This document shows, piece after piece, positions 7,083 through 24,760 of a stretch of 64,000 nt of DNA. Location: positions 700,521 to 764,520 of the forward strand of contig NZ_CP082286.1 of assembly GCF_019880245.1 (NCBI RefSeq), given 5' to 3'. Numbering within the stretch: position 1 is the first letter of the stretch; each line of letters begins with the position of its first letter. The DNA is from Halobaculum roseum (GTDB lineage: Archaea > Halobacteriota > Halobacteria > Halobacteriales > Haloferacaceae). The notes beneath the pieces were generated by a model. That model made no database searches and had not been told where the DNA came from. It saw only the letters and a list, made by a program, of their open reading frames with translations. A program made the translations under genes and the position numbers.

Positions 7083-7085
7083 GGA

Positions 7086-8370: not shown

Positions 8371-8373
8371 GGA

Positions 8374-8610: not shown

Positions 8611-8673
8611 TCCCCTCCCTACTGCGCTACTCGGTCGCTTCGCTCCCTGCGTTGCTGCTTGAGGAAGGGGACT
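8611..8673 (-). repeat. Hairpin repeat upstream of the DUF2080-tnpB pair
   Basis: TCCCCTCCCTACT and CTTGAGGAAGGGGACT match 1025-1071 in sequence and orientation. The arms pair and the loop differs (GCTACTCGGTCGCTTCGC). It lies about 90 bp upstream of the first gene of the unit, as does the other copy relative to its TnpB gene. It probably marks the left side of this element; an alternative is the right end of a deleted neighbour. Confidence 0.5.
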
Positions 8674-8688
8674 TAGCACCTAATTCCA

Positions 8689-9501: not shown

Positions 9502-10421
9502 ACGGTCACCTCGTATTCGTCTGCCAGTTCCTGGAAGTCCTCCCACTCAGGTAGCCGGGACGTCCGCTGGTCACCGCTGGTGTCGAGATATGTGCATAGT
9601 TCCTCGACGGCGTCGTCGACGCCGTACGTGGCGGCTTGGGCCCGGAGTTTGTCGCGGTCGATGTCGACCTGACTGAGCAAGAGCAGGCAGTACGACTGCG
9701 CCCGTGTACCCGAATCGATCACGAGCATGTGACAGCACAATGTCTCCGGCGAGAGCTCATTCGTCGACTCCGAGTAGAAGTAGTATCGACGTTCACGTGC
9801 CAACAGCGGGAGGCCATATCGCTGGAATTGGTCTGGACCTGTCGGAAGGAACTGTTCCTGGGCGATCTCAGTCGTCGTCTGGACAAGGAATTCATCGAGA
9901 GACTCCCACAGAATGGTGTACGTGTGGGTCTGTTCTTCGACAGTGTTGCGGTGAGTGTGATGGGCCAACTCACGAGCGAGTACGCTCAGCTGTTCGAAGC
10001 CGTCATTCAGTACATACGCTCCGTCGTCAGTTTGGTAGACGATTCCGCGATGTTGAAGCGGGGCTAGTGCACGGTGGACGGTGCTTCTGTGGACGTCGGC
10101 ATGGCATGCGAGGTCGGTCACGGTCCGTGGGATGTCGAGATAGTAGCACACACGGAGGGTTGCACCAGACAACAGTTCCGGCCAGTCAATGTGTGAATAC
10201 TGCTGCGTGAGGTCCGTGAGTACCTCGAGTGCCTTTGCGTCCGACAGCCGGAGTTGCTTTGTTTTCCCCTTTCGGCGTGTCTCGACGAGACCAGCCCGTT
10301 CGAGCCGTTGAAGCAGTTCAGAGGTGTAGCTGAGACTTCGATCGAGATTCGTTGCGAGTTCAGAGAGCGTTTGCTCACCATGGAGAGCACTGAGGGCGCG
10401 AACTTCACCTGCTGTGAGCAT
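9498..10421 (-). CDS. Two-winged-helix regulator, AbiEi-like antitoxin candidate
   Basis: This is 307 residues. The first winged helix is at 1-60 (TLSELATNLDRSLSYTSELL and wing TRRKGKTKQLRL). A second lies near 85-150 (DIPRTVTDLACHADVHRSTV and a GIVYQTDDGAYVL wing). The remaining 150 residues have no recognised motif. It is the first gene of a pair with the nucleotidyltransferase at 8689, overlapping it by four bases. AbiEi antitoxins also combine an N-terminal wHTH with a larger C-terminal domain and repress their own operon. The start region has TATATAAAT about 30 bp upstream on the complementary side. Confidence 0.75.
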   Translation of the reverse strand: MLTAGEVRALSALHGEQTLSELATNLDRSLSYTSELLQRLERAGLVETRRKGKTKQLRLSDAKALEVLTDLTQQYSHIDWPELLSGATLRVCYYLDIPRTVTDLACHADVHRSTVHRALAPLQHRGIVYQTDDGAYVLNDGFEQLSVLARELAHHTHRNTVEEQTHTYTILWESLDEFLVQTTTEIAQEQFLPTGPDQFQRYGLPLLARERRYYFYSESTNELSPETLCCHMLVIDSGTRAQSYCLLLLSQVDIDRDKLRAQAATYGVDDAVEELCTYLDTSGDQRTSRLPEWEDFQELADEYEVTV

Positions 10422-10476
10422 GCTATTGCATACTAGCGAATCGATATATAAATCATTTCGGTATTTTGCAACACCG

Positions 10477-10539
10477 ATGGACGCACTCGAGGGCGAAAAG
10501 ATACCACTGAAAGTCCTCCGTTCAGAAAGCCCTGGTGAA
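10477..10539 (+). pseudogene. Short start of a gene interrupted by an element end
   Basis: Downstream of a good TATA box (GATATATAAATC near 10443), an ATG at 10477 opens MDALEGEKIPLKVLRSESPG. At 10534 the sequence enters an insertion-sequence right end and loses any gene character. The promoter, start and protein-like beginning suggest a formerly intact gene divergent from the regulator at 9498-10421. The family cannot be named from about 20 codons. Confidence 0.35.
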
Positions 10540-10600
10540 CTGCCTCGGGGTCAAGCCCCGAGGCACTCGGCCTGTTCCGTCTGTAGATGGGTTCCTGATG
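10534..10600 (-). repeat. Solo IS200/IS605-type right end with perfect hairpin
   Basis: TGCCTCGGGG and CCCCGAGGCA form a perfect 10-bp stem with a five-base loop (10541-10565). It is directly followed on the minus strand by AGTTCACC, the same terminus as the TnpB scaffold copies A and B. No TnpB or TnpA gene is attached. It therefore looks like a remnant of a second TnpB family with a different scaffold but the same cleavage-site sequence. The outer limit near 10600 is a guess. Confidence 0.55.
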
Positions 10601-10617
10601 GTGACCGACAGCCCCTG

Positions 10618-12000
10618 CTATGCGTTCGTCTCAGTAGTCAGCAGGTCAGACAATTCGAAAAGCCGGACGTCAGCTCGTCTGTCAGCGGTGTGTTGGAGGT
10701 CGTCAGTGTACCCGGAGCGGCTGAACAAGACGTACAGCGTCTCCCCGTCTGCCGGCTCTTCTGACCATCGGACTTCCGACACTGTTCGCTCGAGGTCGGC
10801 GAGGACGCCTTCGCTTACGGGTTGGGATGTGAATTTACACTCGCCAGCGACGAGGCCATCGCTGGTGAGGCCGAGGACATCCAGTTCGTGTTCCTTGAAC
10901 CACCACTGTCCGAGGTCACGGAATTGCCGATCGATGAGGTCTGGGAGCGCTCGCTGGCAAAGCCGTTCGAACAGCGGGCTCACGTAATCCGCTAGGTCAG
11001 GTTCGACGAGTTCGTCGTACGCATCGTCCTCGAGCATCCGAAGCTGGTCCTGGTTCCCGTAGACGAATCGGAACCAAAATCGAAACAGCGGCGCAGCGAT
11101 ACGATACCGGCCGCGTTTCGACGCCGTCGGTGATTCCGTTACGGGGATGTGGCGTTCGACGAGACGGAGGCGGCGGAGTTTCTGGAGGTACGTGCTGAGC
11201 GACCCTGACTCCACGCCGGCCATACCGGCGATTTCGTTCGGGGTGCGTCGCCCGTGGGCGAGCGCTCGGAGGATGCTGAAGTACGTATTCGGCTGTCGGA
11301 GTTCGGTTCGGAGCAGGAACTCGGGTTCGGAGTATAGGAGCCCGCGCTCCGAGAGGATCCCCTGCTGGACGTTCGTTCCAAGCGACTGATCAGGATCGAT
11401 GGTCTGGAGGTAGTAGGGAGTGCCGCCGTAGATCGACCATGCCGTGATGGCTGTCTCCGGATCGTACTCTGGGAAGAACTGGCGCGCGTCGGGTACATCG
11501 AGGGGCTTGAGATCGATCGTCGCGGTCCGCCGGCCGTACAGCGGTGCGCTTCCCGAGAGCACCTTATCCTCCATGACACTGATCGATGAGCCGACGAGCA
11601 CGAGCGTCATCCCAGTCTCCTGTAGCTCCAAGTCCCAGACTCGCTGGATCCGTGACGGGAGCGATTCGTCCTCCCCGATAAGGAACGGAAACTCGTCGAT
11701 AACGACGACGGCGTCTTGGTCGCCGAGTGTGTCGAGAAGTACCTCCCAGTCGCGGCGGACGTTCTGCAACGATGGGAACTGTGCAGTGGCGGTGTCGACA
11801 AACTGTTCGAGTTGGTTCTGTGCCGTGGACTCGACGGCCTGGTAGTAGACAGCGTCATCCCGATCAATGATAGACTGGCGAACGAGCTCGCTTTTGCCGA
11901 GGCGACGACGACCATAGATGACGACGAAGTCTGCAGTCTCGGACTCGTAGCAGTCCGTGAGTTGATCGAGTTCGACATCTCGATCAATGAATTGCTCCAT
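10618..12000 (-). CDS. Archaeal ATPase_2 / DUF234 protein
   Basis: This is 460 residues from the ATG at 12000, which has a strong ribosome site (GGAGG five bases ahead) and beats the ATG 24 bases upstream. Walker A is VIYGRRRLGKSEL (residues 28-40) and Walker B AVVVIDEFPFL (about 97-107). A winged helix (RTPNEIAGMAGVESGSLSTY) precedes a C-terminal DUF234 region with DVLGLTSDGLVAGECKFT. That segment has the D...E-x-K pattern of PD-(D/E)xK nucleases. This family is widespread in archaea and common in mobile regions, and its biological role is poorly known. It is transcribed alone and cytoplasmic. Confidence 0.85.
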   Translation of the reverse strand: MEQFIDRDVELDQLTDCYESETADFVVIYGRRRLGKSELVRQSIIDRDDAVYYQAVESTAQNQLEQFVDTATAQFPSLQNVRRDWEVLLDTLGDQDAVVVIDEFPFLIGEDESLPSRIQRVWDLELQETGMTLVLVGSSISVMEDKVLSGSAPLYGRRTATIDLKPLDVPDARQFFPEYDPETAITAWSIYGGTPYYLQTIDPDQSLGTNVQQGILSERGLLYSEPEFLLRTELRQPNTYFSILRALAHGRRTPNEIAGMAGVESGSLSTYLQKLRRLRLVERHIPVTESPTASKRGRYRIAAPLFRFWFRFVYGNQDQLRMLEDDAYDELVEPDLADYVSPLFERLCQRALPDLIDRQFRDLGQWWFKEHELDVLGLTSDGLVAGECKFTSQPVSEGVLADLERTVSEVRWSEEPADGETLYVLFSRSGYTDDLQHTADRRADVRLFELSDLLTTETNA

Positions 12001-12334
12001 ACCTCCGATACTATCCCCATTCAAATAGAACTCCCGATTTTGGAAATCATAGTTTCAGAAATCTCGATTTCTATCTGCTGTTTGCCTCAGGGCTCTCAGG
12101 TGCTCACTCCAACGTTGGTCACCTGCAACGCACAGCCCTTCGACCAGATACGCGTCGCCGTGGTCCAGCGACAGTGCGAGTCGGTCACGGGAGAGTAGCC
12201 GTATTTGAGCCGATCGAACCGGACAGTACAGCCGTTTCAGTCATCGAATCGGCGCTGTTCGGGCGTGTTACGTAGAATCAAGAACGTCTCCATTCTCCGC
12301 ACATCCCACAAAAAATACTCTCCCCGGACTGACG
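12001..12334. other. Gap without an intact gene
   Basis: No complete gene was found. A minus-strand frame ending near 12056 is protein-like for about 45 codons (ALSLDHGDAYLVEGLCVAGD) but lacks a start, so a decayed fragment is possible. The first 60 bases include the ribosome site of the ATPase_2 gene. Confidence 0.4.
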
Positions 12335-14752
12335 CTACGCCAGACTTGGTTCACCAAGCGCATCCCGCAGATGCTTCATGGTGAACACCTCGGTCAGCCC
12401 GGCGCAGTCGATCGCATCGTTCACGTCACGCATCGGCGTTCGTTGACTATACGAACTCTCGATCCGTGGCTCCCCATCAGCGGGGTCAGAGAGCGGCCCG
12501 ATAATTGCGTGGTGGGCAGCCTTCCGGGTGACGGCCGCCCACAACACCTCCGAGGCTCCCAACTCGGCCATCTTATCGAAGTCTCGCGGAGCGGCCTCCG
12601 CAGCGTCGTTGTTCTTGCGTTCGCCTTCGCCAGCGACGACGACGGTTCCATCACCATCAACGCCGGCGACATCGACACGAAACGCCACCTCTGGCGGTTC
12701 ATGATACGGGATCACCCGCTCGACTGGTGACTCCTCACTGTGCTTGTACTCCGTCACAATATAGCGACGCAGCGCCTCGACTAACGCCCGGTGGGTGGCA
12801 GTCTCCTCGAGGTCGCCGTAGCCGTCGCCATGATCGATCCCCTCGCGATTGTGCTCGTTCAACAGCGCGCGACCCTCGCGAGTCACGGTGTACAGCGTCG
12901 CACGCAGGCCGTCGTCTCGCTTCACCAGGCCCGCATCCAGCAACTCATCGAGCTCGTCACGAGAGAGCCCACAGTACTTGCGCAACTCGACCATCGAGTC
13001 GTGCACGAGGTCGTACTCCGCCGGCGAGTAGACACCCCGGGTCGCATTGAGGACGACCTGGAGGAACACCATCCCACGGACGGAGACATGCGCCGCTGCG
13101 ACCTCCTCGGGCGACAGCTTCAGCCGTGCCTCGATCGTCGGGATCGACTCCGGCGCAATGTCACCCAGCGAGTGGTGACACCGCACGGCTTCCAACAGCC
13201 CCGTATACGACGGGTCGTACAGCCGCGAACACGAGGGATGCTCACAGGCGATCGCGTGGTGGGAGTCGGCATACGAAACACAGTCGGGCAACACCGATGT
13301 CACCGGCAGTGTCGTCCCTGTCTGGATAACCGACGGCGCGTCCGACGGCTCGGAGGCGTCCGCGACAGTGACGTGTTCGTATGCGTTCGGGTGGATCCCG
13401 CACTCCTGGCGCGTCCGCTCGATGAGTTCCTCCAATGTTGCATCAAGTTCCCGACGCTCGTCAGCCGACAAGGGCCGCGCACTGTCGGGATACCCCGCAG
13501 GCAACTCCGGCGACCGGATCGGCACCGTCGTCGCCGAGCGCCCGTCGAACGTCTCGGGCGGTGGCCGAAACAGCCACCGCCCCTGTGGCAGCGCACTCAA
13601 CACCTGCTGTGTCTCTGCGGGCGACATGCTTCGGACCGACAACTGACTCGCCAACACGGGATCGTCGGGAATCTGCCCGGCGATGAACGCGTGTGACTCC
13701 GTCACCAGTTCGCGATACAGCCGGTCAGGTGCATGCGAGTCATGTTTGGCCTGGCCGGGGAACTGCATCGAGGCAATAAGCGACAGCCCGTAGCCGCGGC
13801 CCTCCGAGAGCATCTCCGACAACAAGGGTGTCAACGCGATGTTGGCCACCTCCTCGATGTGCACGAGCACGTGTCCCGGCGTCACGTCGAAGGCGAGTCG
13901 CGAGCTCCGGCGTTGCAACGCGAACCACAGCGACGCCAACACGACGATCGCGATTGCCCGTTGGGCAGCGCCCGCGATCCCGCCCAGATCGAACAGGACG
14001 GTCACATCTTCATCCAGCACCTCCTCGAAGGTGAACTGGGGCGTGGACTCGTCAGTCGCGACGTGATTGAAGATCGCCGCGAGATCAGCCTGCCCGGAGA
14101 CACGCTCCAGGCTCGTCACGACACCAGCCATAGTCGCACTCCGGAGGTCTTCACGCTCTTGGGCGAGCCCCTCCAACACACGTGCAGCCCGGTCGCTGGA
14201 GACGGCCGGCACCGAATCGCCGTGTTGGATGGCACGCGCTTCCTCGAGCAAGGCGCTGTGGCGAAACGTCTCACTCCCGTGTGCCGGGTCGAAGGCCGCA
14301 CGGATCAACGCGCGAATGGTCGTTTCCGTTCGCTTGCCGAACTCGCCGTCACCGACGAGATAGCGGATCACCTCCAGATACCGATCAGCCCGGTTCTCGA
14401 TGGCTCGCGACCGCTCGATCCCCGCGTCGAGATCTGCGCGAATGTCGAAGAACGACAGCGCGGGCAACACCTCAGCGACGGGGATGTACACAACGGAGTC
14501 GAGATCCTCCCCGCGGGCAACCAGCGACCGAATGATCCGTTCGCTCATTCCGTCGCCTTTGCCATCGATGAGGATCCGTGGCCCCGCCAGTTCTTGGTGT
14601 GCCGAGGCGAACAGCGCCTCACCGAGGACTGACTTGCCGGTGTTGGTCTTGCCACACACCAGCGTGTGAAACGGCAGACACTCCACGGGGATCTCGACGG
14701 GCCGCAGTCCGTCACCGCGTCGCTGCTCGATCTGGCCGATCGTGAACCCCAC
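12335..14752 (-). CDS. Conjugation-type ATPase (VirD4/HerA-like) with wHTH and nuclease-like tail
   Basis: This is 805 residues with a GTG start overlapping the previous stop by one base (TAGTG). N-terminal ATPase: Walker A LVCGKTNTGKSVL (31-43), Walker B HVLVHIEEVANI (294-305), and a sensor-like SLIASMQFPGQ (324-334), all as in DNA-pumping coupling ATPases. A Cys/His cluster (CEHPSCSRLYDP, 503-514) may bind zinc. A winged helix spans about 580-635. The end (690-745) contains FRVDVAG, then VVVAGEGERK, the D...E-x-K layout of PD-(D/E)xK nucleases. With its membrane partner upstream it is probably the DNA-transfer engine of an integrated conjugative element. Confidence 0.8.
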   Translation of the reverse strand: MGFTIGQIEQRRGDGLRPVEIPVECLPFHTLVCGKTNTGKSVLGEALFASAHQELAGPRILIDGKGDGMSERIIRSLVARGEDLDSVVYIPVAEVLPALSFFDIRADLDAGIERSRAIENRADRYLEVIRYLVGDGEFGKRTETTIRALIRAAFDPAHGSETFRHSALLEEARAIQHGDSVPAVSSDRAARVLEGLAQEREDLRSATMAGVVTSLERVSGQADLAAIFNHVATDESTPQFTFEEVLDEDVTVLFDLGGIAGAAQRAIAIVVLASLWFALQRRSSRLAFDVTPGHVLVHIEEVANIALTPLLSEMLSEGRGYGLSLIASMQFPGQAKHDSHAPDRLYRELVTESHAFIAGQIPDDPVLASQLSVRSMSPAETQQVLSALPQGRWLFRPPPETFDGRSATTVPIRSPELPAGYPDSARPLSADERRELDATLEELIERTRQECGIHPNAYEHVTVADASEPSDAPSVIQTGTTLPVTSVLPDCVSYADSHHAIACEHPSCSRLYDPSYTGLLEAVRCHHSLGDIAPESIPTIEARLKLSPEEVAAAHVSVRGMVFLQVVLNATRGVYSPAEYDLVHDSMVELRKYCGLSRDELDELLDAGLVKRDDGLRATLYTVTREGRALLNEHNREGIDHGDGYGDLEETATHRALVEALRRYIVTEYKHSEESPVERVIPYHEPPEVAFRVDVAGVDGDGTVVVAGEGERKNNDAAEAAPRDFDKMAELGASEVLWAAVTRKAAHHAIIGPLSDPADGEPRIESSYSQRTPMRDVNDAIDCAGLTEVFTMKHLRDALGEPSLA

Positions 14753-16107
14753 TAATCGTCACCCTTGAACATATCATCAAGGTCGTCATCGTCGTTGTCG
14801 TGGTCCAAGCCGCTCTGATCGAGCGCCCCCGTATTTGCGTCCGTCTCCGAGGCAACGATGTCGATCACACCCGCCGGGAGGACGATCGGCGTCCGCTTCT
14901 CGCGAAGCGGGTTCCCGAACGGGCCCGGCAGCGAGATATCCTGCTTGACGATCGATCTGGACCCGTCCCAGACACAGTTCGGACTGAGCACCGCCGGCGG
15001 TGACCGGCGAGCCGACCGCACAGACTGGCTGTTGATGTGGATCGTCGCCTTCAGTCCCGGCGTTCGGTCGATGTAGGCCTTGATGTCGCCCAAGGCAGAG
15101 TTGAGTGCGCTGATCCCATCGGATTTGCGACCGACAGCGAAGCCGACAGCCGTCGCCTGAAACTGGCCGGTCGTAGTTTCAGCACGCTCCACGATGTCCG
15201 CTGTTTCTGGATGGGCACTGTCTCGCTTCCCCAACTGTCTGAGGCGGAGCGGTGGGATGTCGATAGGCACGAGGCGGACCTCAACGCCGGCATACGGGAC
15301 GTCCGCGTCCCGAAGTGTCCGTACCACTCGTTCGCCGGGGATCTGGTTCAGGTCATCCTGCGAGTTTGCCTCAGGGACGATGATCGCCCCCGGGCTCTCC
15401 GCTGAGACCGTAATATATCCAGTACACAGCGTCCGGGTGTCCGAGGCCTTCCCGCAGGCGTCAGTCGCGGCCGCATGCAGCGTTGCATGTGTCGAAGGGC
15501 CACTGTCTACATCCCGACCCAGACTTTTGTTCACGACCGCATCGACATCGATGTCGCCGTCAGCGCCAATGGTCGCTTCGACCCCGGAGTCCGTTTTGAC
15601 TACTGTGCTCCGGGCGGTTGACTCGGACGTCATCCCGCGAGTCATCGACGGGATGAGCACCATGATGCACCCTATCACGAACAGCACTGTCACAACCGCC
15701 AAGACGCCGATCACCCGCCCCCCGGAGAGCGGGAATGTCCAGAGTGCGGTTCTGATGAGCGGGTGGAGTGTTCCAGGCAGATACTGTATTGGGCTTGTGG
15801 GGTCGACGAACGCCCACACCGCGCCCACAACCGCGACGACGATGCTAATTGCAATCGGGAGGGTGATCACCCCGACCCACCGGTTTTTCGTCCGCAGTTC
15901 GTCTCGAACCGGTTCTGCGACAATCCCACAGACTGCTGTGAGCCGCTCGAGCGCCCGGGTGAACAGTGACCGGCCCGGAACGCCGTGGTGTAGCTCCTCG
16001 CCGAATTTGCTCGCGATCACCTCATCCGACAGCCTGTCGATCAGTGAATGCGCTCGCGCCGATACGTCAGATCTAGAGTTGCGATCTTTCTTCATTTCTT
16101 CTCGCAA
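14752..16107 (-). CDS. Membrane partner of the conjugation-type ATPase
   Basis: This is 451 residues (a second ATG five codons in is possible). A basic N-terminus is followed by two membrane helices at about 80-103 (VITLPIAISIVVAVVGAVWA) and 133-153 (GGRVIGVLAVVTVLFVIGCI). About 290 residues of soluble domain follow, ending in an Asp-rich tail (DHDNDDDDLDDMFKGDD). No enzyme motif was found. It is the first gene of the two-gene unit with the ATPase at 12335 (1-base overlap), which fits a membrane component that docks the ATPase. It is a conserved type in haloarchaeal elements, without an established name. Confidence 0.7.
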   Translation of the reverse strand: MREEMKKDRNSRSDVSARAHSLIDRLSDEVIASKFGEELHHGVPGRSLFTRALERLTAVCGIVAEPVRDELRTKNRWVGVITLPIAISIVVAVVGAVWAFVDPTSPIQYLPGTLHPLIRTALWTFPLSGGRVIGVLAVVTVLFVIGCIMVLIPSMTRGMTSESTARSTVVKTDSGVEATIGADGDIDVDAVVNKSLGRDVDSGPSTHATLHAAATDACGKASDTRTLCTGYITVSAESPGAIIVPEANSQDDLNQIPGERVVRTLRDADVPYAGVEVRLVPIDIPPLRLRQLGKRDSAHPETADIVERAETTTGQFQATAVGFAVGRKSDGISALNSALGDIKAYIDRTPGLKATIHINSQSVRSARRSPPAVLSPNCVWDGSRSIVKQDISLPGPFGNPLREKRTPIVLPAGVIDIVASETDANTGALDQSGLDHDNDDDDLDDMFKGDD

Positions 16108-17862
16108 TTTCGGTGTTGAGAATCATGGCATATAAAAACTAGTCTGTTTATTTGATAGGTGCAAGTGAATTTCTCGCAAGAATGTGCCGGAGTCGCACGG
16201 TTTTCTTGTCGATATTGAATATCTGTAAAACTGATAAGTCGGGCATTCATCGCGTGCAGATCACTGTCGTCGAAGTGGTCCAGGTCGCTCCGGCAGACAC
16301 TCGAAGGATAGTTCACCGATCCCCACCCCTTCGTTTCTACTCCACAGCTACGTCAGGGGACGATCGCCGATTGTGAGAGGCTCTATGCCCAGGATCGCTC
16401 GTCCACAGGCTGCATGACGCTCCGCAATAGGGAAGAGGAAATCCAAAAAGAGAGCAATACAGTACAGACAGCCACAGACGCGACACGGGGGCCAGGGCCC
16501 CGCACATCGCTGCCGCCGGAGCATCGACGGAACCGGAGGACAGCGATGTGACGCGTCTTGGCAGTGATCACGTCCCACGTCCGGATGGGACATCGGTCTA
16601 CATGGTCGGCCCGATTCGGTGGGGACCACTGTCGCCACAGAGAGCCACAGCCGTGTATTTGGGACAGAGAGTCTGTGGAACGGTAGATCTGCTATTTACC
16701 GCTGGTGGATGGCGACAGTCGGTGCAGTCCGTGGACCTCGCATCGACCGTGGGTGAACCGGTGTTCGGTGCGGCAATTGCAGTTTGTCGTGGCTACAGTG
16801 TGGGCGGCGGTACAGTCGGGCGCACACCTCCCTCGCTGATGTTCCTCAGTAGCCTTGCTGTGACGGACAGGGAGCGCTCCTAGATCGTTCCTAGTCAACT
16901 GAGTGTTCGGTGCATCACCAACCGATGTCGTGTGTCGATACGGACGTTGTCGTCTCCAGCGGTTCCAGCCCGTTGTGGTTCCGACGCTCGAACTGAAGCC
17001 GAGGCAATAGCTCCCACCGCTCGGCGTGACACAACGTCCAACCCCACTCTATAGGGAAGCATGCAGTCGGATGCGTCGCCGTCGAAACAAGCCACGCCAC
17101 CGCAACGGGGTACAACAGGTTCTCCAAGTCCAAGCAGGGTGCTCACGCCCACGAGTAGGGATCACTGTTGCACCAGATACAGCCAGCCAAGGCGGTTCCA
17201 CAGAGTCACACACCGGCTCACTCGTGCAATCGCCGGCGGTGTGAGTTCTTCGCTGTCTGCTCGCCGCCTCCGACAGCCGTCATCTCAAAACTGGCAGGGC
17301 ACCATCCTCTGCTCTGGTGGTATCTCCGGTCACTGCGATGGCTTGTCACCCTCTCGGAACACAGCGAACAGGTGTATCTTCTTCACCGATGCCACGTCAA
17401 CCGGGACTGTGTGTGAATCGGTCGGTCTCGCGACCGTGGCGTCGTCGCGTGTGGCCCACCGCGCGTCGCTTCCGTTGGGGGTGGGCTCGTTTACTAGTGT
17501 TTGTTGTTGTTGGTACTCTCTCCTCTTGCGGACCCCGTGTCAAAACGTGAACCGTCCGACTAGATTCAACATCCACTTACTGAGCCTTTGATTGGTTCAC
17601 CGTCCTGTGGAAGGACTTCAGAACCAGACTGGAACTATTTGGCTGACGGTGCGTTGAGACAGTAAACCGGTGGTAGAGACCTTCCACAGGCCATATTCGA
17701 CTGTGGAATTCTACCGATGAGTCTGTGGAATCTGGTATTGTGGGACCCGTAGGTGTCGCTGCATCATAGTTGGACGATCTCACACGGAACGAGGTCACCG
17801 TCTCGCTACCGGACTCGATTCGTCCCGGGCTGCCAGGTATGGCGAACTGCCGAACTCGTGTC
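16108..17862. other. Long non-coding stretch
   Basis: For 1.75 kb no frame has convincing gene character. The best is a minus-strand frame 16915-17133 with a TTG start (FPIEWGWTLCHAERWELLPR), which might be a gene remnant. Six copies of TGTGGAA/TTCCACA lie at 16674-17730. Its place upstream of a conjugation-type gene pair fits an origin of replication or transfer, or a decayed part of the element. No replication initiator gene (Orc/Cdc6 or Rep) is adjacent. Confidence 0.5.
16674..17730. repeat. Six dispersed TGTGGAA motifs
   Basis: TGTGGAA occurs at 16674, 17606, 17702 and 17724 on the plus strand and as TTCCACA at 17196 and 17682. Four of the six fall within 125 bp (17606-17730), and two share the longer core CTGTGGAAT. 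Chance expectation for a 7-mer on both strands of 1.75 kb is about 0.2. They could be iterons or protein-binding sites. Confidence 0.5.
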
Positions 17863-18756
17863 TCAGTGGTAGTTTTCTAACACGTCGGGGACACTCCGGA
17901 GGAGCGTCCCTACGTGGTCGGCATCATCGAGCACTCGAAGCTGCGCGGTCGGAATTCGAGACTGGAGCCGCCGAACGCTTTCGATCGGAACGTTGGTGTC
18001 AGTGTCGCCGTGCCAGAACCGAGTTTCCGTATCGAGATCCGACAGTGGAACTTCCCAGTCCGTCGCTGCAGCCCGGAATTCGGTTATTGCGCCGGAGCGA
18101 CAGCGGGCAAAGGCTTCGAGGAAGTCTGCCCTGACAAGCCGGGCGACGTCCTCGGGGACGGCATCCGTGTTTCCCGACGCCGTGTACTGGTCGACGACGA
18201 CCGACGGATCGGACCGCTCGGCGAGCCATGCCTGACCGCGAAGGAGTCCATCGAGGACGACGGGTGCCTTCGTCGCCAGTCCCGAGAGGAGTCGTTGGGT
18301 GACAGGCGGGTCCTCGGTGACGCTCGGCGGGGTGGCACCGGCGACGATGTCGATCTCACGAACACGGGACCCGTGTGTGGCGGCGGCTGCAAGCGCGTGA
18401 GGACTCCCACCCGAGAAGGCGATGATCCCGGCGGTCTCCACGTTCGCGTCGTCGAGGACGGCACTGACGATCGTTCCAGCGTCGCGTATCGAGCGGTCCG
18501 ACCACGGCTCCGACCGGCCGAACCCCGGCCGGTCGGGGGCGATCACTCGGATACCTCGCTCACGCGCGGCCGGCGCTAGGAGCGCCCCGAGCCGGCGCGA
18601 CCCGGGCGTCCCGTGGAGAAAGAGGACCGGCGTCCCGTCGGCATCGCCGTACTGGGCGTAGGCGAGTTGGTTGTCGTCTTCGAGCGTAACTGTCCGATAC
18701 TGGTCACCGGGGTTGTTCCCTGAGGAACGCGGGGAATCGGGGACTGAGTGTTGCAT
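17863..18756 (-). CDS. Alpha/beta hydrolase
   Basis: This is 297 residues. The oxyanion-hole strand VLFLHGTPGSRR is near residue 45 and the nucleophile elbow is IIAFSGGSPHAL near 115, with Ala in place of the first Gly of G-x-S-x-G. The acidic residue is probably in WHGDTDTNVP and the catalytic His in DDADHVGTLL near the end. The cap region is helical. It has no signal peptide, so it is cytoplasmic. The substrate cannot be predicted; the family covers esterases, epoxide hydrolases and haloperoxidase-like enzymes. It is monocistronic, at the border between the mobile island and the metal block. Confidence 0.85.
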   Translation of the reverse strand: MQHSVPDSPRSSGNNPGDQYRTVTLEDDNQLAYAQYGDADGTPVLFLHGTPGSRRLGALLAPAARERGIRVIAPDRPGFGRSEPWSDRSIRDAGTIVSAVLDDANVETAGIIAFSGGSPHALAAAATHGSRVREIDIVAGATPPSVTEDPPVTQRLLSGLATKAPVVLDGLLRGQAWLAERSDPSVVVDQYTASGNTDAVPEDVARLVRADFLEAFARCRSGAITEFRAAATDWEVPLSDLDTETRFWHGDTDTNVPIESVRRLQSRIPTAQLRVLDDADHVGTLLRSVPDVLENYH

Positions 18757-19015
18757 TGGGTTCGGGAGGGGCGCGTTTCGAGGTAGCGTGCTGTCGGGTC
18801 AAGCGATCGGCGTGGCGACACGAGACGGCGGCACCGCACTGGACTCGCCAATGGACCGGAGGGGTATTATTATCCAACGGAACGAGCTGTCTGCCGGGAC
18901 TCGGTTCCATGGCAATACGGACGAACTGTCGGTGAAGCCGTCGTTGAAGCTCGGTTTCGAACCGTGAGTTCGACCCGAGTGGTCGCGGTCGGAATCCCGT
19001 CGGGGTCGGTGGCGA

Positions 19016-21298
19016 TCAGTCTCCGGGCTGGGCCTCGGTGGATGCTGCGACTCCCGGAAGGCTAGGGACAGACAGATCGACGCGCCGGAGCAGCTGCGCG
19101 TTGATCGCGACGATCACCGTGCTCAGCGACATCAAGAGCGCACCCACGGCGGGCGACAGCAGGATCCCGATCGGAGCCAACACGCCCGCCGCAAGCGGGA
19201 TCGCGAGGACGTTGTACCCGGCCGCCCAGACGATGTTCTCCTGCATCTTCCGGTAGCTCGCTTTGCTGAGTTTCACGAGCCGGACCACGTCCATCGGGTT
19301 GTTCTGGACGAGGATGACGTCCGCCGACTGGACCGCGATGTCGGTGCCGCTCCCGATGGCGATGCCCACGTCGGCCCGCGTCAGCGCCGGCGCGTCGTTC
19401 ACGCCGTCTCCGACCATCCCGACGAGCTTCCCCTGGTCCTGGAGTTCCTGCACCGTCTCGTCTTTGTCCTCGGGGAGGACCTCCGCGAACACCGTCTCGA
19501 TGCCCAACTCGTCGGCGACGGCGTCGGCGACATCCCGAGAATCGCCGGTCAGCATCGCCACCTCGATGCCCAGGTCGTGGAGGGCCTCGACCACGCGGAA
19601 ACTCTCCTCGCGGATCACGTCGGCCATCGCGAACGCGGCGATCAGCTCCCCGTCACGAACGAGATACACCACGGTCCGTGCGTTCTCGCCGGCCTCGTCG
19701 GCGAACTGCCGGAGGTGGTCCGGGACCTCGCTATCGAGTTGAGTCAACAGGTTCGGCCCGCCGACGTACACCTCGTTCCCTTCGACGGTCGCGCGGACGC
19801 CCCTGCCCTTGATCGCCTCGAAGTCGGTCGCATCAGGTGCGCTGAGATCGCGCTCCTCGGCTGCCTCGCGGATGGCTCGCGCGATCATGTGCTCCGAATC
19901 GCGCTCGACGGCCGCCGCCAGCGCGAGTGCGTCGGCCTCGGTTACGCCGTCGACGGTCGCCATGTCGACGACGCCGTGTTCGCCTCGGGTGAGCGTCCCC
20001 GTCTTGTCGAAGACGATGGCGTCCAGATTCCGTGCCTCCTCCATCGCGATCCGGTCGCGGACGAGCATCCCGTTGCGAGCCGCGAGCGACGTGTTGATCG
20101 CGACCACGAGGGGGATAGCGAGCCCGAGCGCGTGCGGGCAGGCGATGACGAGCACCGTGACGACGCGCTCGATGACGGTCGCGTCGAACGAGACCGCGAG
20201 CGTCCACGCGATCGCCGTCACGACGGCCGCCCCGAGCGCGACGTAGAACAGCCACCCGGCCGCGCGGTCGGCCAGCACCTGCGTCTCGGATTCGCTCTGC
20301 TGGGCTTCCTCGACGAGGCGCATGATGCCCGCGAGCGTCGCCTCCTCGCCCGTCGCACCGACACGGACGCGGAGACTGCCGTCGCCGTTGATCGTCCCGC
20401 CGATGACCTCGTCGCCGGGCTCCTTCGAGACCGGGTTCGACTCGCCGGTGATCATCGACTCCTCGACGTCGGAATCGCCCTCCTCGACGGTCCCGTCGGC
20501 AGGGACGCTCGCGCCCGGCCGGACGAGCACGAGGTCGCCCTCGGAGAGGTCGCTGACGGGGACCTCCTCGGTCTCACCGTCGTCGGTGATCCGCTCGGCG
20601 GTATCGGGCATCAGCTTCGCGAGCTCGTCGACCGCGCTCGAAGCCCGGCGTACCGATCGCATCTCGATCCAGTGCCCCAGTAGCATGATGTCGATCAGCG
20701 TGACGAGCTCCCAGAAGAACGCCGACTGCGTCGGGAAGGCCACGCTGGCGAGGCTGTAGACGAACGCGACGCTGATCGCCATCGAGATGAGCGTCATCAT
20801 CCCCGGCGACCGGTCCTTTAGCTCCGGCACCGCCATCCGGAGGAACGGGATCCCGCCGTACGCGAACACGATCACGGCGAAGACGGGGTTGATCCACTCG
20901 CTGCCCGGGAACGCGGGGACGGAGAACCCGAGCCACTCCTGCAGCATGTCGCTGTACAGGAGGACGGGGATCGACAGGAGCGTCGAGACGAAGAAACGCC
21001 GACGGAACATCCGTTCGTGCCCTTCGTGCATCCCGCCGTGGCCCTCACCGTGCCCCTCGTGGGAACCGTGACCGTGCCCTCCCTCGTGTCCGTCGTGCTC
21101 GTGCCCCTCGTGGAGCGCCGTCTCATCCGCTGCGGCTGGCTGCGTCTCCTCCTCTAGTAGCCCCCGTTCGACCCGGTGCTCATCAGCCCCGTCGACCGCC
21201 TCATCGTGGTGACCGGCCCCCTGTTGGTGGTGACTGCCGTTGTCCTGCTGGGTTCCGTCTCCCGTCGGGTTTTCATCTGTATCGTGGTGGTCGTCCAT
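19016..21298 (-). CDS. copB: Copper-exporting P1B-type ATPase, CopB-like
   Basis: This is 760 residues. It starts with about 95 residues very rich in His, Gly, Glu and Asp (repeats such as [16 protein letters not shown]), a metal-sensing or metal-binding tail in place of CxxC domains. The transmembrane metal site is CPH (387-389, [10 protein letters not shown]), typical of P1B-3 CopB pumps for Cu(II)/Cu(I). TGES (284-287) is the actuator loop, DKTGTLT (431-437) holds the phosphorylated Asp, and [12 protein letters not shown] is the hinge. It acts in the cytoplasmic membrane to export copper (possibly silver). A CopZ-like chaperone gene lies just upstream on the same strand. Confidence 0.92.
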
Positions 21299-21440
21299 GG
21301 GTCATGTTCTCTATTGAGGTAGTTCCGCCGGCATCCTGAACGTTCGGCCCCCGCAACCGTGCAGCAGGGTCAGTGTGGGTGTACTCCGAAGAGAATGGTG
21401 AGTCGTTCACTTCGGAGCGTTCTGTGCCATCAACAGATCG

Positions 21441-21644
21441 TTATACTCGGGCGTGAGCGGTATACCCCGCGTCTTCGACGGCCTCCACGAGCGCCGAGAC
21501 ATCTGCCTCACCATTGACGCTCGCCTGTTCGCTCTCCCTATCAACGGTCACGTCAGTCACGCCGGAGACCTCTCGGAGCGCGTCCTCGACCGTTTGCTCA
21601 CAGTGACCGCACGACATTCCCTCTACGTTGATGGTTGTCGTCAT
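21441..21644 (-). CDS. Copper chaperone CopZ-like (HMA domain)
   Basis: This is 67 residues from the ATG at 21644; the frame opens four codons earlier without need. It is a single heavy-metal-associated domain: VEGMSCGHCEQTVEDAL carries the CxxC metal site, and the rest gives the usual beta-alpha-beta-beta-alpha-beta pattern ending in AVEDAGYTA. It would carry Cu(I) in the cytoplasm and hand it to the neighbouring CopB-like pump. It is same-stranded with that gene, 140 bp away. Confidence 0.9.
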   Translation of the reverse strand: MTTTINVEGMSCGHCEQTVEDALREVSGVTDVTVDRESEQASVNGEADVSALVEAVEDAGYTAHARV

Positions 21645-21975
21645 ACAGGAGTACATACGGCCCCCTCTCTTTAGCGGGTTTCCCCTTCGATCATACTGGT
21701 ATCGCGGGGGTCAAACTTTAGATTCGAAGCGGTACCTGCGGACGTAACGGACCGATCTCGGGTTCTCCAGCCGTCGGCGGCGAAAGGATTCATGATTCGG
21801 CGTGCCGCTCTCTGTAGGTCTTCGCCGCTACGAAGACAGATACTGCGTCGATAGCCAGAATGCCCGAGCGGAATCGTTCGTTCCATTCTATCGAGACCGG
21901 GGCAGTCCGGACAGTAGCCGCTTCGAACCTGACCCGACACACGGAAGCCGCGTTTCGAACGGGCGTCCCGAATAC
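21645..21975. other. Gap upstream of copZ
   Basis: No gene is supported. A minus-strand 40-codon frame near 21670-21790 has no recognisable features. The right part trails off the DUF7521 gene end. The promoter of the chaperone gene is expected just right of 21644. Confidence 0.4.
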
Positions 21976-22251
21976 TCAGGGGTTCGGGGCATACAGGGCA
22001 TAGAGGATAGACAGCATCCCCGCCGCAGTGACGAGTGCTGCGACGGTTCCCGCTTCGAAGATCGACACCCGGAGGAGTTCGAAGAGGACGCCTTCGAGGA
22101 GGCCGCCGAGCCCGATCAGTGCGAAGCCGGCGGCGACGTACAGGAGTAACTGCGTGTGATGCCGTCGGTACCCGCGATAGGCCTGGTAGGCGATGACCAG
22201 CGCCAGCGCGGTCGTGAACAGTTTGCCGATGACGAATAGCGTGTGTTCCAT
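21976..22251 (-). CDS. DUF7521-type three-helix membrane protein
   Basis: This is 91 residues with three hydrophobic segments (KLFTTALALVIAYQAYRGY; LLLYVAAGFALIGLGGLL; AGTVAALVTAAGMLSILYAL). Haloarchaeal proteins of this size and pattern (DUF7521) are regularly encoded next to a small winged-helix regulator, as here: the regulator ends three bases upstream. It may be a membrane sensor or signal partner for that regulator. The function is not established. Confidence 0.75.
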   Translation of the reverse strand: MEHTLFVIGKLFTTALALVIAYQAYRGYRRHHTQLLLYVAAGFALIGLGGLLEGVLFELLRVSIFEAGTVAALVTAAGMLSILYALYAPNP

Positions 22252-22254
22252 GAG

Positions 22255-22605
22255 TCAGTCTCCCCGCATCTCCTCGAAGATGGTCGCGATCCGGTCGGCG
22301 GGGTCCGGCCGGACGTCGATGGTGACGTCGAACCCCTCCGCCCGCAGGAGAACCTCGATGCGTTCGAGGCGCGCCTCGTACTCGCTGTAGTGGCGCCCTC
22401 CCGGGTCGACGTGCGTGTATTCCTCGAGGAGGCCCTGCTCGACGAGGCGCGAGACACGCCGCGAGACGGTCGGACGCGACATGTCGCATACCTCGCTGAG
22501 TTCCTTCGCGGACAGCCGGTCGGTCTTCGTCGCCACGAGGATGTCGCGGGCGTACTCGTCGTCGAGTGTCGCGAAGACCGCCGGCGGATCGGGCTCCTCG
22601 GTCAC
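22255..22605 (-). CDS. ArsR-like winged-helix regulator
   Basis: This is about 116 residues from the GTG at 22605 (GTG 22611 and TTG 22614 are in frame too). Winged helix at 10-75: FATLDDEYARDILVATKTDR, recognition helix SRPTVSRRVSRLVEQGLLEE, and wing YTHVDPGGRHYSEYEA. A C-terminal segment (IEVLLRAEGFDVTIDVRPDP) may form dimer contacts. It is divergent from the doxX gene across about 115 bp, so it is placed to control both that gene and its own DUF7521 partner, possibly in response to metal or redox stress. Confidence 0.8.
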   Translation of the reverse strand: MTEEPDPPAVFATLDDEYARDILVATKTDRLSAKELSEVCDMSRPTVSRRVSRLVEQGLLEEYTHVDPGGRHYSEYEARLERIEVLLRAEGFDVTIDVRPDPADRIATIFEEMRGD

Positions 22606-22719
22606 ACGCACCAACTCGCGACAGGAGGGTAATATAACTCGCCGGTTTTCCGACTCGGAACGCCGGCTCGCTGCTATATCGTCTCTCCCGGCCTACTGAT
22701 AGTTGTAGGTGAAGTAAGT

Positions 22720-23280
22720 ATGTCCACACTCGACTCCGGCATGAACCAACTCGAGAGCAGAGTCGGCGGCCTGACCGTCGGCGGGAAAGTCCACAGCCTG
22801 AGCGCGTGGTTCGTGCTCGCGCTCCGTCTCATGATGGGCTACGCGTTCGCGTACTCCGGATTCACGAAGATCACCGGCGAGTTCGCCGCCGGCGGCTACC
22901 TGGCGAACGTCGCGGCGACGAACGGCAACCCCCTCGCGGGCCTGTTCGCGTGGATGGGGTCGACGCCGTGGTTCGTCGAGTTCGCGAACGTCGCCGTCCC
23001 GTGGGGCGAGCTGTTCATCGGCCTCGGCCTGCTCGTCGGCGCGTTCGTCCGCCTCGCGGCGTTCTTCGGCGCGCTCATGATGCTCATGTTCTACTTCGGG
23101 AACTGGGACATGGCTCACGGGTTCATCAACGGGGACTTCGCGTACATGCTCGTGTTCCTCGCGGTCGCCGCGTTCGCCGCGGGCCGCATCCTGGGCCTCG
23201 ACCAGTACATCGAACAGTACGAGATCGGCGGAGAGGCGCTCGTCGAGCGCTACCCCGCTCTCGAATACGTTCTCGGCTAA
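22720..23280 (+). CDS. DoxX family membrane protein
   Basis: This is 186 residues. It has four membrane helices in DoxX arrangement with the signatures LRLMMGYAFAYSGFTKI and PWGELFIGLGLLVGAFVRLA, and a late LVFLAVAAFAAGRILGLDQY. DoxX proteins are membrane components linked to oxidative stress, sulfur or quinone chemistry; the exact reaction here is unknown. It is followed by a SHOCT-domain gene 28 bp downstream, probably in one transcript, and faces a divergent wHTH regulator. Confidence 0.85.
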   Translation: MSTLDSGMNQLESRVGGLTVGGKVHSLSAWFVLALRLMMGYAFAYSGFTKITGEFAAGGYLANVAATNGNPLAGLFAWMGSTPWFVEFANVAVPWGELFIGLGLLVGAFVRLAAFFGALMMLMFYFGNWDMAHGFINGDFAYMLVFLAVAAFAAGRILGLDQYIEQYEIGGEALVERYPALEYVLG

Positions 23281-23308
23281 CCACGCCGAGCACTGTAGGA
23301 GTACAACG

Positions 23309-23701
23309 ATGCGAAATCCGATTCGAGCACGCGGGATTCGTTCTCTGGGGCTCATCGTCATTGGAGCACTGTCGCTGGCCGTCATCGCCGGAACGGCGCT
23401 GACGCAGGCGGCCGTCCCGAGTACAATGATGTGGGACTGGCACGACGGCATGTGGACCGGCGGCCACATGGAGGGATGGAGTGGCTGGGGGATGGTCCTG
23501 TTCGGTCTCCTGTGGATGGGACTCCTCGTCGCCCTCCCGACCGCTCTCGTCTACTGGCTGGCAACGCGGTCGCGATCGGACGGCCAAGCCGAGGATAGCG
23601 CACTCGCTGTCCTCGAAAGGCGGTACGCTCGCGGCGAGATCGACGACGAGGAATTCGACCGCCGCCGCGCCCGGCTCGTGTCCGGTGGCGGCCGGTACTG
23701 A
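23309..23701 (+). CDS. SHOCT-domain membrane protein 1
   Basis: This is 130 residues. Two hydrophobic segments (SLGLIVIGALSLAVIAGTAL; WGMVLFGLLWMGLLVALPTA) flank a Met/His/Trp-rich loop (MMWDWHDGMWTGGHMEG) that could bind copper or another soft metal. A C-terminal SHOCT motif follows (VLERRYARGEIDDEEFDRRR). SHOCT modules are short helical oligomerisation segments. It is co-oriented with doxX and is the first of three SHOCT genes in this block. Confidence 0.85.
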   Translation: MRNPIRARGIRSLGLIVIGALSLAVIAGTALTQAAVPSTMMWDWHDGMWTGGHMEGWSGWGMVLFGLLWMGLLVALPTALVYWLATRSRSDGQAEDSALAVLERRYARGEIDDEEFDRRRARLVSGGGRY

Positions 23702-23810
23702 CTCCGGTGCCGGTGAACCACGAGGAGCTGCCTACGGGCGTCGTCGAGGGTGCCGCCGTGTTCACGTATCCGTCAGCCGTTCGGCAAGCACCGAGTTGTT
23801 CACCGGCTGG

Positions 23811-24061
23811 TCACTCAGATCGTTCGAGCTTGTCCCGGCGGGCTTCGAACTCCTCGTCGGTGAGATGTCCGCGGGCGGACGCCAGACGCAATTCCGCCAT
23901 CGCGGGATCTGGGACGTTCCTGCGCCGCTCACCCACCTGAGGAGGAAGACGAGCGGGACAGCCATTCCGACGACGGGCCACCAGCCGCCGGCTCTTCCGT
24001 AGTGACCCATGAACGCCCCGAGGATCAGGAGGAGTATCGTCGTGGTGTCCAGTTGATCCGA
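23811..24061 (-). pseudogene. SHOCT-domain gene 2, frameshifted
   Basis: The minus strand encodes ILLLILGAFMGHYGRAGG then VVGMAVPLVFLL in one frame. Near 23935-23945 it must shift frame to continue DPAMAELRLASARGHLTDEE then FEARRDKLERSE and a stop. Both halves fit one small SHOCT membrane protein, so a short deletion in the second membrane helix broke the gene. There is no ATG upstream in frame: it begins right after the stop of the DUF302 gene, suggesting former co-translation. A sequencing error is a possible alternative. Confidence 0.7.
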
Positions 24062-24076
24062 TGAAGCCGTCGACGA

Positions 24077-24493
24077 TCAGGCCTCCCGCGCGGGGTCGAA
24101 CTCGTCCGAAACGGCTGCCAGTACGCGATGGAATCGTTCGGCGACCTCGGTCGCGATGGAATCGAGCGCGTCGTTATCAGCGATCCCGACGAGCTGCTCC
24201 GGATCGACCGCGCGTACCGCGATGTCGCCGTCATCGGTCTCATAGACGATGACGTTACAGGGCAACAGCGCGCCGAGCTCGATCTCCTCGGTTAACCCTT
24301 CGTACGCCAGCGGCGGATTGCACGCACCGAGAATGCGATACTGGCGGAACTCCTCGCCGAGCTTCTCCTTGAGCGTCGCCCGAATGTCGATGTCACAGAG
24401 GACGCCGAATCCCTCGTCCTTCAGTGCAGCGTTCGTTGCCTCGACGACGTCGTCGAAGTCACCAGTGACTACGGTCTGTATTGTGTATTCCAT
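24077..24493 (-). CDS. DUF302 family protein
   Basis: This is 138 residues from the ATG at 24493; the open frame extends further but in promoter-like DNA. DUF302 signatures are evident: EGFGVLCDIDIRATLKEKLG, then YRILGACNPPLAYEGL, then IELGALLPCNVIVYE. The two Cys are characteristic. The family is frequent next to copper and sulfur genes, and its activity is unknown. It is probably followed in the same transcript by the broken SHOCT gene. Confidence 0.88.
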   Translation of the reverse strand: MEYTIQTVVTGDFDDVVEATNAALKDEGFGVLCDIDIRATLKEKLGEEFRQYRILGACNPPLAYEGLTEEIELGALLPCNVIVYETDDGDIAVRAVDPEQLVGIADNDALDSIATEVAERFHRVLAAVSDEFDPAREA

Positions 24494-24760
24494 GGGATAC
24501 CATATCCTGTCCGCCGGGTTAACTGTTGGGTTCTCAACAGCGACCGTTGGGGGAGTCCAATGGTTCGGGGGCAACAGCAACGATTGCGCCCTTTCAGTGG
24601 ATTCAATCGGGTTCGCTGACGATTCGTTCTGCCCCATATTGATCCGCAGAGACACCTGTTCGTCTCCGAGCGTTCGTGAACAATCGGTGCCTCGGTCTTG
24701 AATAAAAACTACAATCTCAGTGGCGGAATCCGGACAAGATTCGATATCGTGAGTCGGCGT

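What the first reader, a model, noticed from the sequence alone, without database searches (positions are those of the whole stretch)
16108..17862. Long non-coding block with clustered TGTGGAA motifs: origin candidate
Six TGTGGAA/TTCCACA copies fall in about 1.06 kb, four in 125 bp near 17606-17730, against about 0.2 expected by chance in the whole 1.75-kb gap. The block lies upstream of the conjugation-type gene pair. This is what iterons, a transfer origin or a replication origin would look like.
Basis: seen in the sequence. Interest (0 to 1): 0.5.

Follow-up and report, generated by a model that had tools for sequence, protein, structure and literature searches.

The report
Haloarchaeal DNA-transfer site candidate
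A gene-free stretch of DNA in a salt-loving microbe carries a fixed layout of short protein-binding signals that recurs beside DNA-pumping motor genes in several relatives, so it may be the spot where a motor is loaded to process or move DNA.

Summary
The block (16108-17862; Halobaculum sp. chromosome) is non-coding and carries six CTGTGGAA, against 0.07 per shuffle; TGTGGAA is absent from 18 kb of other ORF-poor gaps nearby. The boxes form a layout kept almost to the base in 4 of 11 Halobaculum genomes: left arm TCCACAG-61-TCCACAG-20-CCGCAAKA, right arm CTCTTGCGG-160-TCCACAG..CTGTGGA..CTGTGGA, centre of variable length. The block lies upstream of a split VirD4/HerA-like ATPase and its membrane partner.

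CCGCAAGA, taken from Halobaculum, is enriched just downstream of the unsplit relatives in other haloarchaea, often with the same box-13 bp-CCGCAAGA arm and as a convergent pair. Most relatives show no detectable element. On a Haladaptatus plasmid a version with TCCACA boxes shares the replicon with VirB4- and VirB6-like genes. Solitary copies occur elsewhere.

Best reading: a cis-acting DNA-processing or transfer site read by this ATPase family, working like Streptomyces TraB/clt. Binding and transfer are untested. A cdc6-type origin is not supported; a plasmid origin or partition site remains possible. My literature searches listed no description of it.

The parts
16108..17766 (.). conserved non-coding block (cis-acting site)
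   Evidence: Alignable to G005 up to 17766; no codon periodicity
16341..16347 (-). left arm, outer box TCCACAG
   Evidence: 61 bp before the next box in all four genomes
16402..16408 (-). left arm, inner box TCCACAG
   Evidence: 20 bp (start to start) before CCGCAAKA in all four genomes
16422..16430 (+). left arm, CCGCAATAG motif
   Evidence: CCGCAAGA recurs beside unsplit relatives
16673..16680 (+). inner CTGTGGAA box
   Evidence: kept in G005, not seen in H. gomorrense or G002
17196..17203 (-). inner CTGTGGAA box (reverse)
   Evidence: kept in G005, not seen in H. gomorrense or G002
17523..17531 (-). right arm, CTCTTGCGG motif (reverse of CCGCAAGAG)
   Evidence: Present in all four genomes, 160-161 bp before the three-box array
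17605..17612 (+). right arm, CTGTGGAA box
   Evidence: last base differs in G005
17682..17689 (-). three-box array, box 1 (TTCCACAG)
   Evidence: Array spacing identical in four genomes; exact array in 4 of 391 genomes
17701..17708 (+). three-box array, box 2 (CTGTGGAA)
17723..17730 (+). three-box array, box 3 (CTGTGGAA)
14752..16107 (-). 451-aa protein with two hydrophobic stretches (by eye), probable membrane partner
   Evidence: relatives in 3 of 391 genomes, and an equivalent in G179 seen by reading
12335..14752 (-). 805-aa VirD4/HerA-like ATPase with winged helix and a possible nuclease-like C-terminal domain
   Evidence: relatives in 251 of 391 genomes

Best explanation
The block is a cis-acting nucleoprotein site. 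Short boxes (CTGTGGAA here) and a second motif (CCGCAAKA) form two inward-facing arms. It belongs, probably, to a haloarchaeal element family linked to VirD4/HerA-like ATPases that carry their own winged helix. Most likely (inferred) the ATPase, or a partner encoded beside it, binds the arms, loads as a ring on double-stranded DNA, possibly cuts through its C-terminal nuclease-like domain, and pumps the DNA toward the membrane partner. That would make it a relaxase-less transfer or processing origin working like Streptomyces TraB/clt. Shown: box statistics, conserved geometry, statistical linkage to the ATPase genes, domain architecture by prediction, T4SS-like genes on one plasmid that carries the element. 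Inferred: binding, loading, cutting, transfer. Solitary copies would be former or additional entry points.
For: Box clustering far above shuffles and other gaps. Same distances within each arm in four genomes while the centre varies from 452 to 1101 bp. CCGCAAGA, defined in Halobaculum, occurs 14 times in 18.9 kb just downstream of 19 unsplit ATPase relatives against 6 in 252 kb around them, and CCGCAAKA 16 in 42 kb against 18 in 391 kb in 42 further loci. Arm matrix on those 42 loci: 14 hits downstream against 6 elsewhere. Convergent arm pairs 13 against 3, 2, 2 for other orientations. Centre matrix from six copies, five of them not beside an ATPase: 25 hits downstream against 16 elsewhere. 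ATPase motor resembles VirB4, TrwB and HerA; winged helix. Element plus VirB4/VirB6-like genes on one plasmid.
Against: At the thresholds used, 50 of 61 ATPase loci show no convergent arm pair within 1 kb downstream and 42 of 60 no centre. The Halobaculum blocks lack the central motif, and their right arm has only a degenerate box at the 13-bp position (by eye). G002 has the block without the split pair; its nearest ATPase of the family is 45 kb away. This genome's own unsplit ATPase (L175) has no CCGCAAKA downstream. 11 of 22 strict arm matches are solitary. In Halobaculum the site is upstream of the pair, in the others downstream of the gene. No binding, nicking or transfer data. I did not search this genome for VirB4 or relaxase genes.
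Confidence: 0.42

Rival explanations
1. Replication origin of an integrated plasmid-type element: initiator boxes on both sides of a centre that opens, not of the orc/cdc6 class.
For: Inverted boxes around a centre; an ORF family matching the NrS-1 polymerase helix-bundle domain lies near the ATPase in 14 of 61 loci; plasmid-borne examples.
Against: The nearest cdc6 gene is 320 kb away here and 28 kb in G002; no AT-rich centre; several solitary copies in one genome; the linkage is to a VirD4-like pump.
Confidence: 0.2
2. Partition or chromosome-organising site (centromere-like) bound by a segregation protein, with the HerA-like ATPase acting on it.
For: Fixed arrays of inverted boxes with helical phasing (61 against 70-72 bp); solitary copies dispersed in genomes.
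Against: I noticed no ParA/ParB gene beside the site (only 18 window proteins were scanned with Pfam); present in only 4 of 11 Halobaculum genomes; the ATPase looks like a coupling protein.
Confidence: 0.12
3. Recombination or transposition ends: two end-specific arrays bound by a recombinase, with variable cargo between them.
For: Arms fixed, centre variable in length; block found at non-syntenic places in different species.
Against: Single copy per Halobaculum genome; interiors of copies in one genome not alike; no cargo gene; no direct repeat of 9 bp or more between 3151-3450 and 17651-17950.
Confidence: 0.08
4. Operator cluster or regulatory RNA region controlling the ATPase pair.
For: The block lies directly upstream of the 451-aa gene; a winged-helix regulator gene lies at 9498-10421; some 120-nt windows fold better than shuffles.
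Against: Boxes lie 0.2-1.6 kb from the gene start; in unsplit relatives the element is downstream of the gene; solitary copies exist; the low-energy windows of the four genomes do not form one consistent pattern; no Rfam match in the window.
Confidence: 0.09

Closest known systems
Streptomyces TraB / clt (cis-acting locus of transfer)
   Same: 8-bp repeats in non-coding DNA near a ring ATPase with a C-terminal helix-turn-helix; clt-like sequences also dispersed in the chromosome (passages read in PMC5365140 and PMC12857230).
   Different: Two inward-facing arms with a second motif and fixed spacing; a VirD4/HerA-like rather than FtsK-like motor, with an extra nuclease-like domain; binding and transfer untested; different repeat sequence.
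VirD4-type coupling protein with relaxase oriT (e.g. TrwB of R388)
   Same: Motor fold (TrwB Z 25.2, rmsd 3.6, 362 aligned); weak TraG-D_C match.
   Different: No relaxase seen among the window proteins scanned; winged helix and nuclease-like domain within the ATPase.
Thermus TdtA / ICEth1 transjugation
   Same: HerA-like dsDNA pump on an integrated element acting with a nuclease (passages read in PMC5365140).
   Different: TdtA has no detected DNA-binding domain and no defined cis-site.
Thermococcus pT33-3 conjugative plasmid
   Same: VirB4/VirD4-like genes and no relaxase identified (passages read in PMC12857230).
   Different: Not compared by sequence; no cis-site is mentioned in the passages I saw.
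Haloarchaeal orc/cdc6-adjacent origins (ORBs)
   Same: Inverted protein-binding boxes around a centre (passages read in PMC3528665).
   Different: No adjacent orc/cdc6 gene, no G-string, no AT-rich centre.

Membership tests
Haloarchaeal orc/cdc6-adjacent replication origin | orc/cdc6 gene directly adjacent | tested here: not met
   Nearest Cdc6_C match to the block about 320 kb (G000) and 28 kb (G002)
Haloarchaeal orc/cdc6-adjacent replication origin | ORB with G-string | tested here: not met
   No run of G after the boxes in the block, by eye; criterion from passages of PMC3528665
Haloarchaeal orc/cdc6-adjacent replication origin | AT-rich unwinding region between boxes | tested here: not met
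   16500-17499 is 60.9% GC
TraB/clt-type transfer locus | cluster of 8-bp repeats in non-coding DNA next to the pump gene | tested here: met
TraB/clt-type transfer locus | pump with motor and DNA-reading winged helix | tested here: met
   Predicted only: motor, MarR-like winged helix Z 8.4, rmsd 2.1, 70 aligned
TraB/clt-type transfer locus | pump binds the repeats and moves dsDNA | not testable with these tools
   Needs binding and mating assays
VirD4/TraG coupling-protein family (Pfam/NCBIfam) | match above the curated cut-off | tested here: not met
   Window protein TraG-D_C 19.8 bits against 22; NCBIfam matches far below cut-off; 19 of 23 relatives match TrwB_AAD_bind at E <= 0.01
VirD4/TraG coupling-protein family (Pfam/NCBIfam) | coupling-protein motor fold | tested here: met
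   VirB4 Z 27.2, TrwB 25.2; DndH-C 28.1 and HerA 24.6 are as close, so the subfamily is not resolved
Relaxase-type oriT | relaxase gene and nic site | not tested
   No relaxase search was made in this genome; a nic site cannot be seen by these tools
PD-(D/E)XK nuclease | fold and catalytic residues | tested here: inconclusive
   YaeQ Z 7.5, AF1548 Z 7.4; E709 and E711 invariant in 23 sequences
Dispersed miniature transposon (MITE) | copies in one genome alike over their whole length | tested here: not met
   Four G066 units 61-67% alike, three G029 units 63-65%, the same range as between species

The most novel reading that the evidence does not exclude
The block is one member of a haloarchaea-wide family of two-armed DNA elements (box-13 bp-CCGCAAGA arms facing each other, often with a central box) that serve as entry points for VirD4/HerA-like dsDNA pumps carrying their own winged helix and nuclease. 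That would be a relaxase-free origin of plasmid and chromosome transfer in haloarchaea, with lineage-specific box words (TTCATAATCGG, TTCACAA, TCCACA, CTGTGGAA) that co-vary with the pump.
Probability: 0.3. Interest if true: 0.85.

Novelty: new variant of a known kind. Interest (0 to 1): 0.66.

Why it matters
Relatives of this ATPase are widespread in haloarchaea (251 of 391 genomes). Yet the typing given with the plasmid collection calls all 141 matching plasmids 'non-mobilizable', and a recent review says of the archaeal conjugative plasmids it discusses that no relaxase has been identified by sequence similarity (PMC12857230, passages). A defined cis-site linked to the pump would make the question 'where does transfer start?' directly testable and give a sequence handle for finding mobile elements in haloarchaeal chromosomes.

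Tried and rejected
Rejected: (1) chance or compositional clustering. (2) Hidden protein gene or pseudogene: no clear 3-periodicity, mostly non-triplet indels. (3) Structured RNA: low-energy windows form no consistent pattern across genomes, no Rfam match at gathering score in the window; no covariation test was made. (4) MITE: interiors not shared. (5) cdc6-type origin. (6) Viral origin of the box array: two viral contigs matched it, but on reading one and part of the other they hold TTATCCACA clusters, which I recognise from memory as DnaA boxes and take as chance; the exact TTCATAATCGG-N9-CCGCAAGA arm had 0 matches in viral contigs. (7) No blastn relative of the window block in plasmid or phage records, nor of the G002 block in plasmid records. 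(8) Enriched 8-mers in all gaps around 22 loci gave many GC-rich, codon-like words and was not informative by itself; the G179 cluster was picked from it after the fact. (9) Direct repeats of 9 bp or more between 3151-3450 and 17651-17950: none. (10) A centre-motif script found nothing because its regular expression was wrong by one base; corrected. (11) The 451-aa search (3 of 391) missed G179, whose equivalent was seen only after fetching the locus, so that count is a lower bound. (12) The G002 block as query mostly hit a common 53-nt repeat, which I take from memory for an IS200/605-type end, and was re-run without it; that query did not recover G000 or G005, so blastn misses diverged copies.

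Rows dropped or doubled: L075 (split type) left out. L158, whose two arms are identical to those of L198, is counted but dropped. L084 dropped (overlaps a training site). The arm matrix differs from that in one training site (one L085 site in place of the L090 site), and four of its 11 positive loci supplied training sites. The centre matrix overlaps the CCGCAAGA word at some loci, so searches are not fully independent. ATPase loci were taken from the E-value-ranked list, not at random. Fold-search families absent from the lists are not excluded.

Full report
What was checked. The six TGTGGAA copies are present as reported. The shared word is CTGTGGAA, six copies, with CTGTGGA at two more places, 16341 and 16402. 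Shuffles give 0.066 CTGTGGAA on average, and none of 1000 reaches six. Elsewhere in 164 kb of this chromosome TGTGGAA never exceeds one per 1,755 bp, and 18.0 kb of other ORF-poor gaps contain none.

Non-coding and conserved. A congener, G005, has the block at 87% identity at the end of a 14.5-kb segment alignable over window 3272-17766. In 250-bp bins the stretch 4000-12000 is 99-100% identical except one bin of 96.8%, the gene pair 89-99% and the block 84-91%. Substitutions in the block show no clear codon periodicity and most indels are not multiples of three. Five of the six CTGTGGAA are unchanged in G005; the sixth differs in its last base.

Fixed geometry. The three-box array TCCACAG-N11-YTGTGGA-N15-CTGTGGA was sought in 391 genomes of the class with up to two mismatches. 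Exact matches occur only in four Halobaculum genomes (G000, G005, G001, G002), one each; three other hits have two mismatches and look like chance, two of them the same sequence. H. gomorrense and G002 share the block at 74% over 743 and 72% over 324 columns, in a syntenic region with surface-glycan genes (by reading). Aligning the four shows a left arm TCCACAG-61-TCCACAG-20-CCGCAAKA and a right arm CTCTTGCGG-160/161-TCCACAG, then two CTGTGGA (the middle box is TTGTGGA in H. gomorrense), with the same distances to within one base in all four, while the distance between arms varies: 1101, 1093, 700, 452 bp.

The neighbouring pair. The 451-aa gene and the 805-aa ATPase gene read away from the block. 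The ATPase has relatives in 251 of 391 genomes, in the fetched loci mostly single proteins of about 1,150-1,370 aa whose last 800 aa match it. The 451-aa partner was found in G000, G005 and G001 (3 of 391), three of the four genomes with the block; an equivalent pair in G179 was seen by reading, with six GTCTGTG in a 1.7-kb gap upstream (0 of 1000 shuffles). AlphaFold (23-row alignment, pLDDT 83.9) gives a motor matching DndH-C (Z 28.1, rmsd 3.2, 337 aligned), VirB4 (27.2, 3.2, 335), TrwB (25.2, 3.6, 362) and HerA (24.6, 3.8, 311). The C-terminal 328 residues alone (pLDDT 86.0) give a MarR-like winged helix (2fxa Z 8.4, rmsd 2.1, 70 aligned) and weak matches of the last part to YaeQ (Z 7.5, rmsd 3.8, 115 aligned) and AF1548 (Z 7.4, rmsd 4.0, 109 aligned). 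I recall both as PD-(D/E)XK-type; that label comes from no call. E709 and E711 are invariant in 23 sequences.

A wider element. CCGCAAKAG was defined in Halobaculum before the relatives' flanks were examined for it. Around 19 unsplit relatives (20 loci fetched, the split one left out) CCGCAAGA occurs 14 times in 18.9 kb directly downstream of the gene, 5 times in 176 kb upstream, 0 times in 67.8 kb of gene and once in 7.7 kb further down. Nine of 19 loci have it, the most of 560 letter permutations (next: 6) and of all 8-mers (next: 8). Before half of these sites (7 of 14 by the script), 13 bp away as in Halobaculum, stands a box such as TTCATAA, TTCACAA or TCCATAA. A matrix of this arm (those seven plus three Halobaculum sites) tested on 42 further loci gave, at threshold 12, 14 hits in 42 kb downstream against 1 upstream, 1 in genes and 4 further down, in 10 of 42 loci, two of which carry identical arms. 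The bare word CCGCAAKA is 16 in 42 kb against 18 in 391 kb there, in 13 of 42 loci; the strict box-13-CCGCAAKA pattern matches downstream in only 1 of 42. With a near-identical matrix, arms come as convergent pairs: 13 against 3, 2 and 2 for the other orientations, ten of the 13 being 342-420 bp apart; 11 of 61 loci have such a pair starting 54-362 bp after the stop codon, and letter-shuffled flanks gave 0.0.

Solitary copies. The strict arm pattern in 25 genomes gave 22 matches against 7 for the reversed pattern. Six lie within 1.5 kb of an ATPase gene, one at 1.9 kb, four are the Halobaculum blocks, and eleven (nine units) are solitary, four units of them in G066. Of 15 units read in full, 8 show an outer box 70-72 bp from the inner one on at least one side (61 bp in Halobaculum, about one helical turn less), and several a central motif AAAACCGATAGACGG..CCGATTATGAA. 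A matrix of that centre, trained on six copies of which five are not beside an ATPase, was tested on 60 ATPase loci without the overlapping one: 25 hits in about 60 kb downstream against 16 elsewhere, in 18 of 60 loci. Copies in one genome do not share interiors. The Halobaculum blocks lack the centre. One G218 unit has TCCACAA 13 bp before CCGCAAGA, one letter from the window's TCCACAG.

Link to conjugation genes. On Haladaptatus plasmid NZ_CP119783.1 the ATPase gene is followed by a 689-bp gap with six TCCACA (0.6 per shuffle; 0 of 1000 reach six), both arms (with CCGGAAG in place of CCGCAAG) and the centre (for the identical L198 arms, 127, 128). The plasmid also encodes a VirB4-like protein (NF045971, E 1.3e-41, below that family's cut-off), TrbL/VirB6 (PF19590, E 1.8e-19, above cut-off) and a weakly TrsD-like protein. 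A Halarchaeum plasmid has a VirB4-like gene 12 kb from the same ATPase type, but no arm was detected in its gap. Across 61 loci, recurrent ORF families near the ATPase include one with a borderline OB-fold match in one of three members tested (18 loci), one with the NrS-1 polymerase helix-bundle domain in two of two tested (14 loci) and one with below-cut-off ArdC-N matches in two of two tested (9 loci).

Mechanism. Shown: clustered boxes, conserved geometry, statistical linkage to the ATPase genes, predicted domains. Inferred: the ATPase or its partner reads the boxes, loads on duplex DNA and moves or cuts it. This resembles Streptomyces, where TraB reads 8-bp clt repeats through a C-terminal helix-turn-helix and clt-like sequences are spread over the chromosome (passages in PMC5365140 and PMC12857230). 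Against it stand G002 (block without the split pair), the majority of ATPase loci without a detectable element, this genome's own unsplit ATPase without one (L175), and the solitary copies. A plasmid replication origin, a partition site, a recombination site and an operator cluster remain open.

Literature. Searches for haloarchaeal VirD4 or integrative elements (3 papers; 12 of 330 listed), archaeal type IV secretion (1), haloarchaeal oriT (8 of 626 listed) and the literal motif words (1, unrelated; 10 of 22 listed, unrelated) showed no description of this element. The library lacks most subscription papers and only the listed papers were seen. I read passages, not whole papers, of PMC3528665, PMC5365140 and PMC12857230; all others were seen only in listings.

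Noticed in passing
window 4000-12000: This stretch (TnpB-type gene, regulators, archaeal ATPase) is almost identical to G005 while the gene pair and the block differ by 1-16%: a sign of recent exchange or conversion.
   Followed up: no
window 4536-4654, 6515-6636, 7124-7256: Three copies of an about 120-bp repeat around a TnpB/IS605-type gene (7141-8370), also in G005 on two replicons; each later copy carries two CTGTGGA words 18 bp apart.
   Followed up: partly
window 17863-26723: Right of the block lies a probable metal-resistance island (P-type ATPase, ArsP-like permease with YHS/TRASH domains, DoxX); its best matches in G005 lie on other replicons.
   Followed up: partly
L075:8152-9853 (G179): Another split ATPase pair has a 1.7-kb upstream gap with six GTCTGTG (0 of 1000 shuffles), a possible lineage-specific box.
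   Followed up: partly
L095:8060-8112 (G002): A 53-nt stretch near the G002 block (query 260-312 of L095:7800-9420) recurs at 94-100% identity in hundreds of haloarchaeal genomes; I take it from memory for an IS200/605-type end.
   Followed up: no
L073, L074: Two viral contigs carry dense TTATCCACA clusters (recalled DnaA-box word) whose spacing matches the array by chance; a possible DnaA-type origin in those phages.
   Followed up: no
L021:8065-8463 (H. gomorrense): Apparent remnant of the glycosyltransferase gene that is whole in G002 (L095:5477-7003), beside the block.
   Followed up: no
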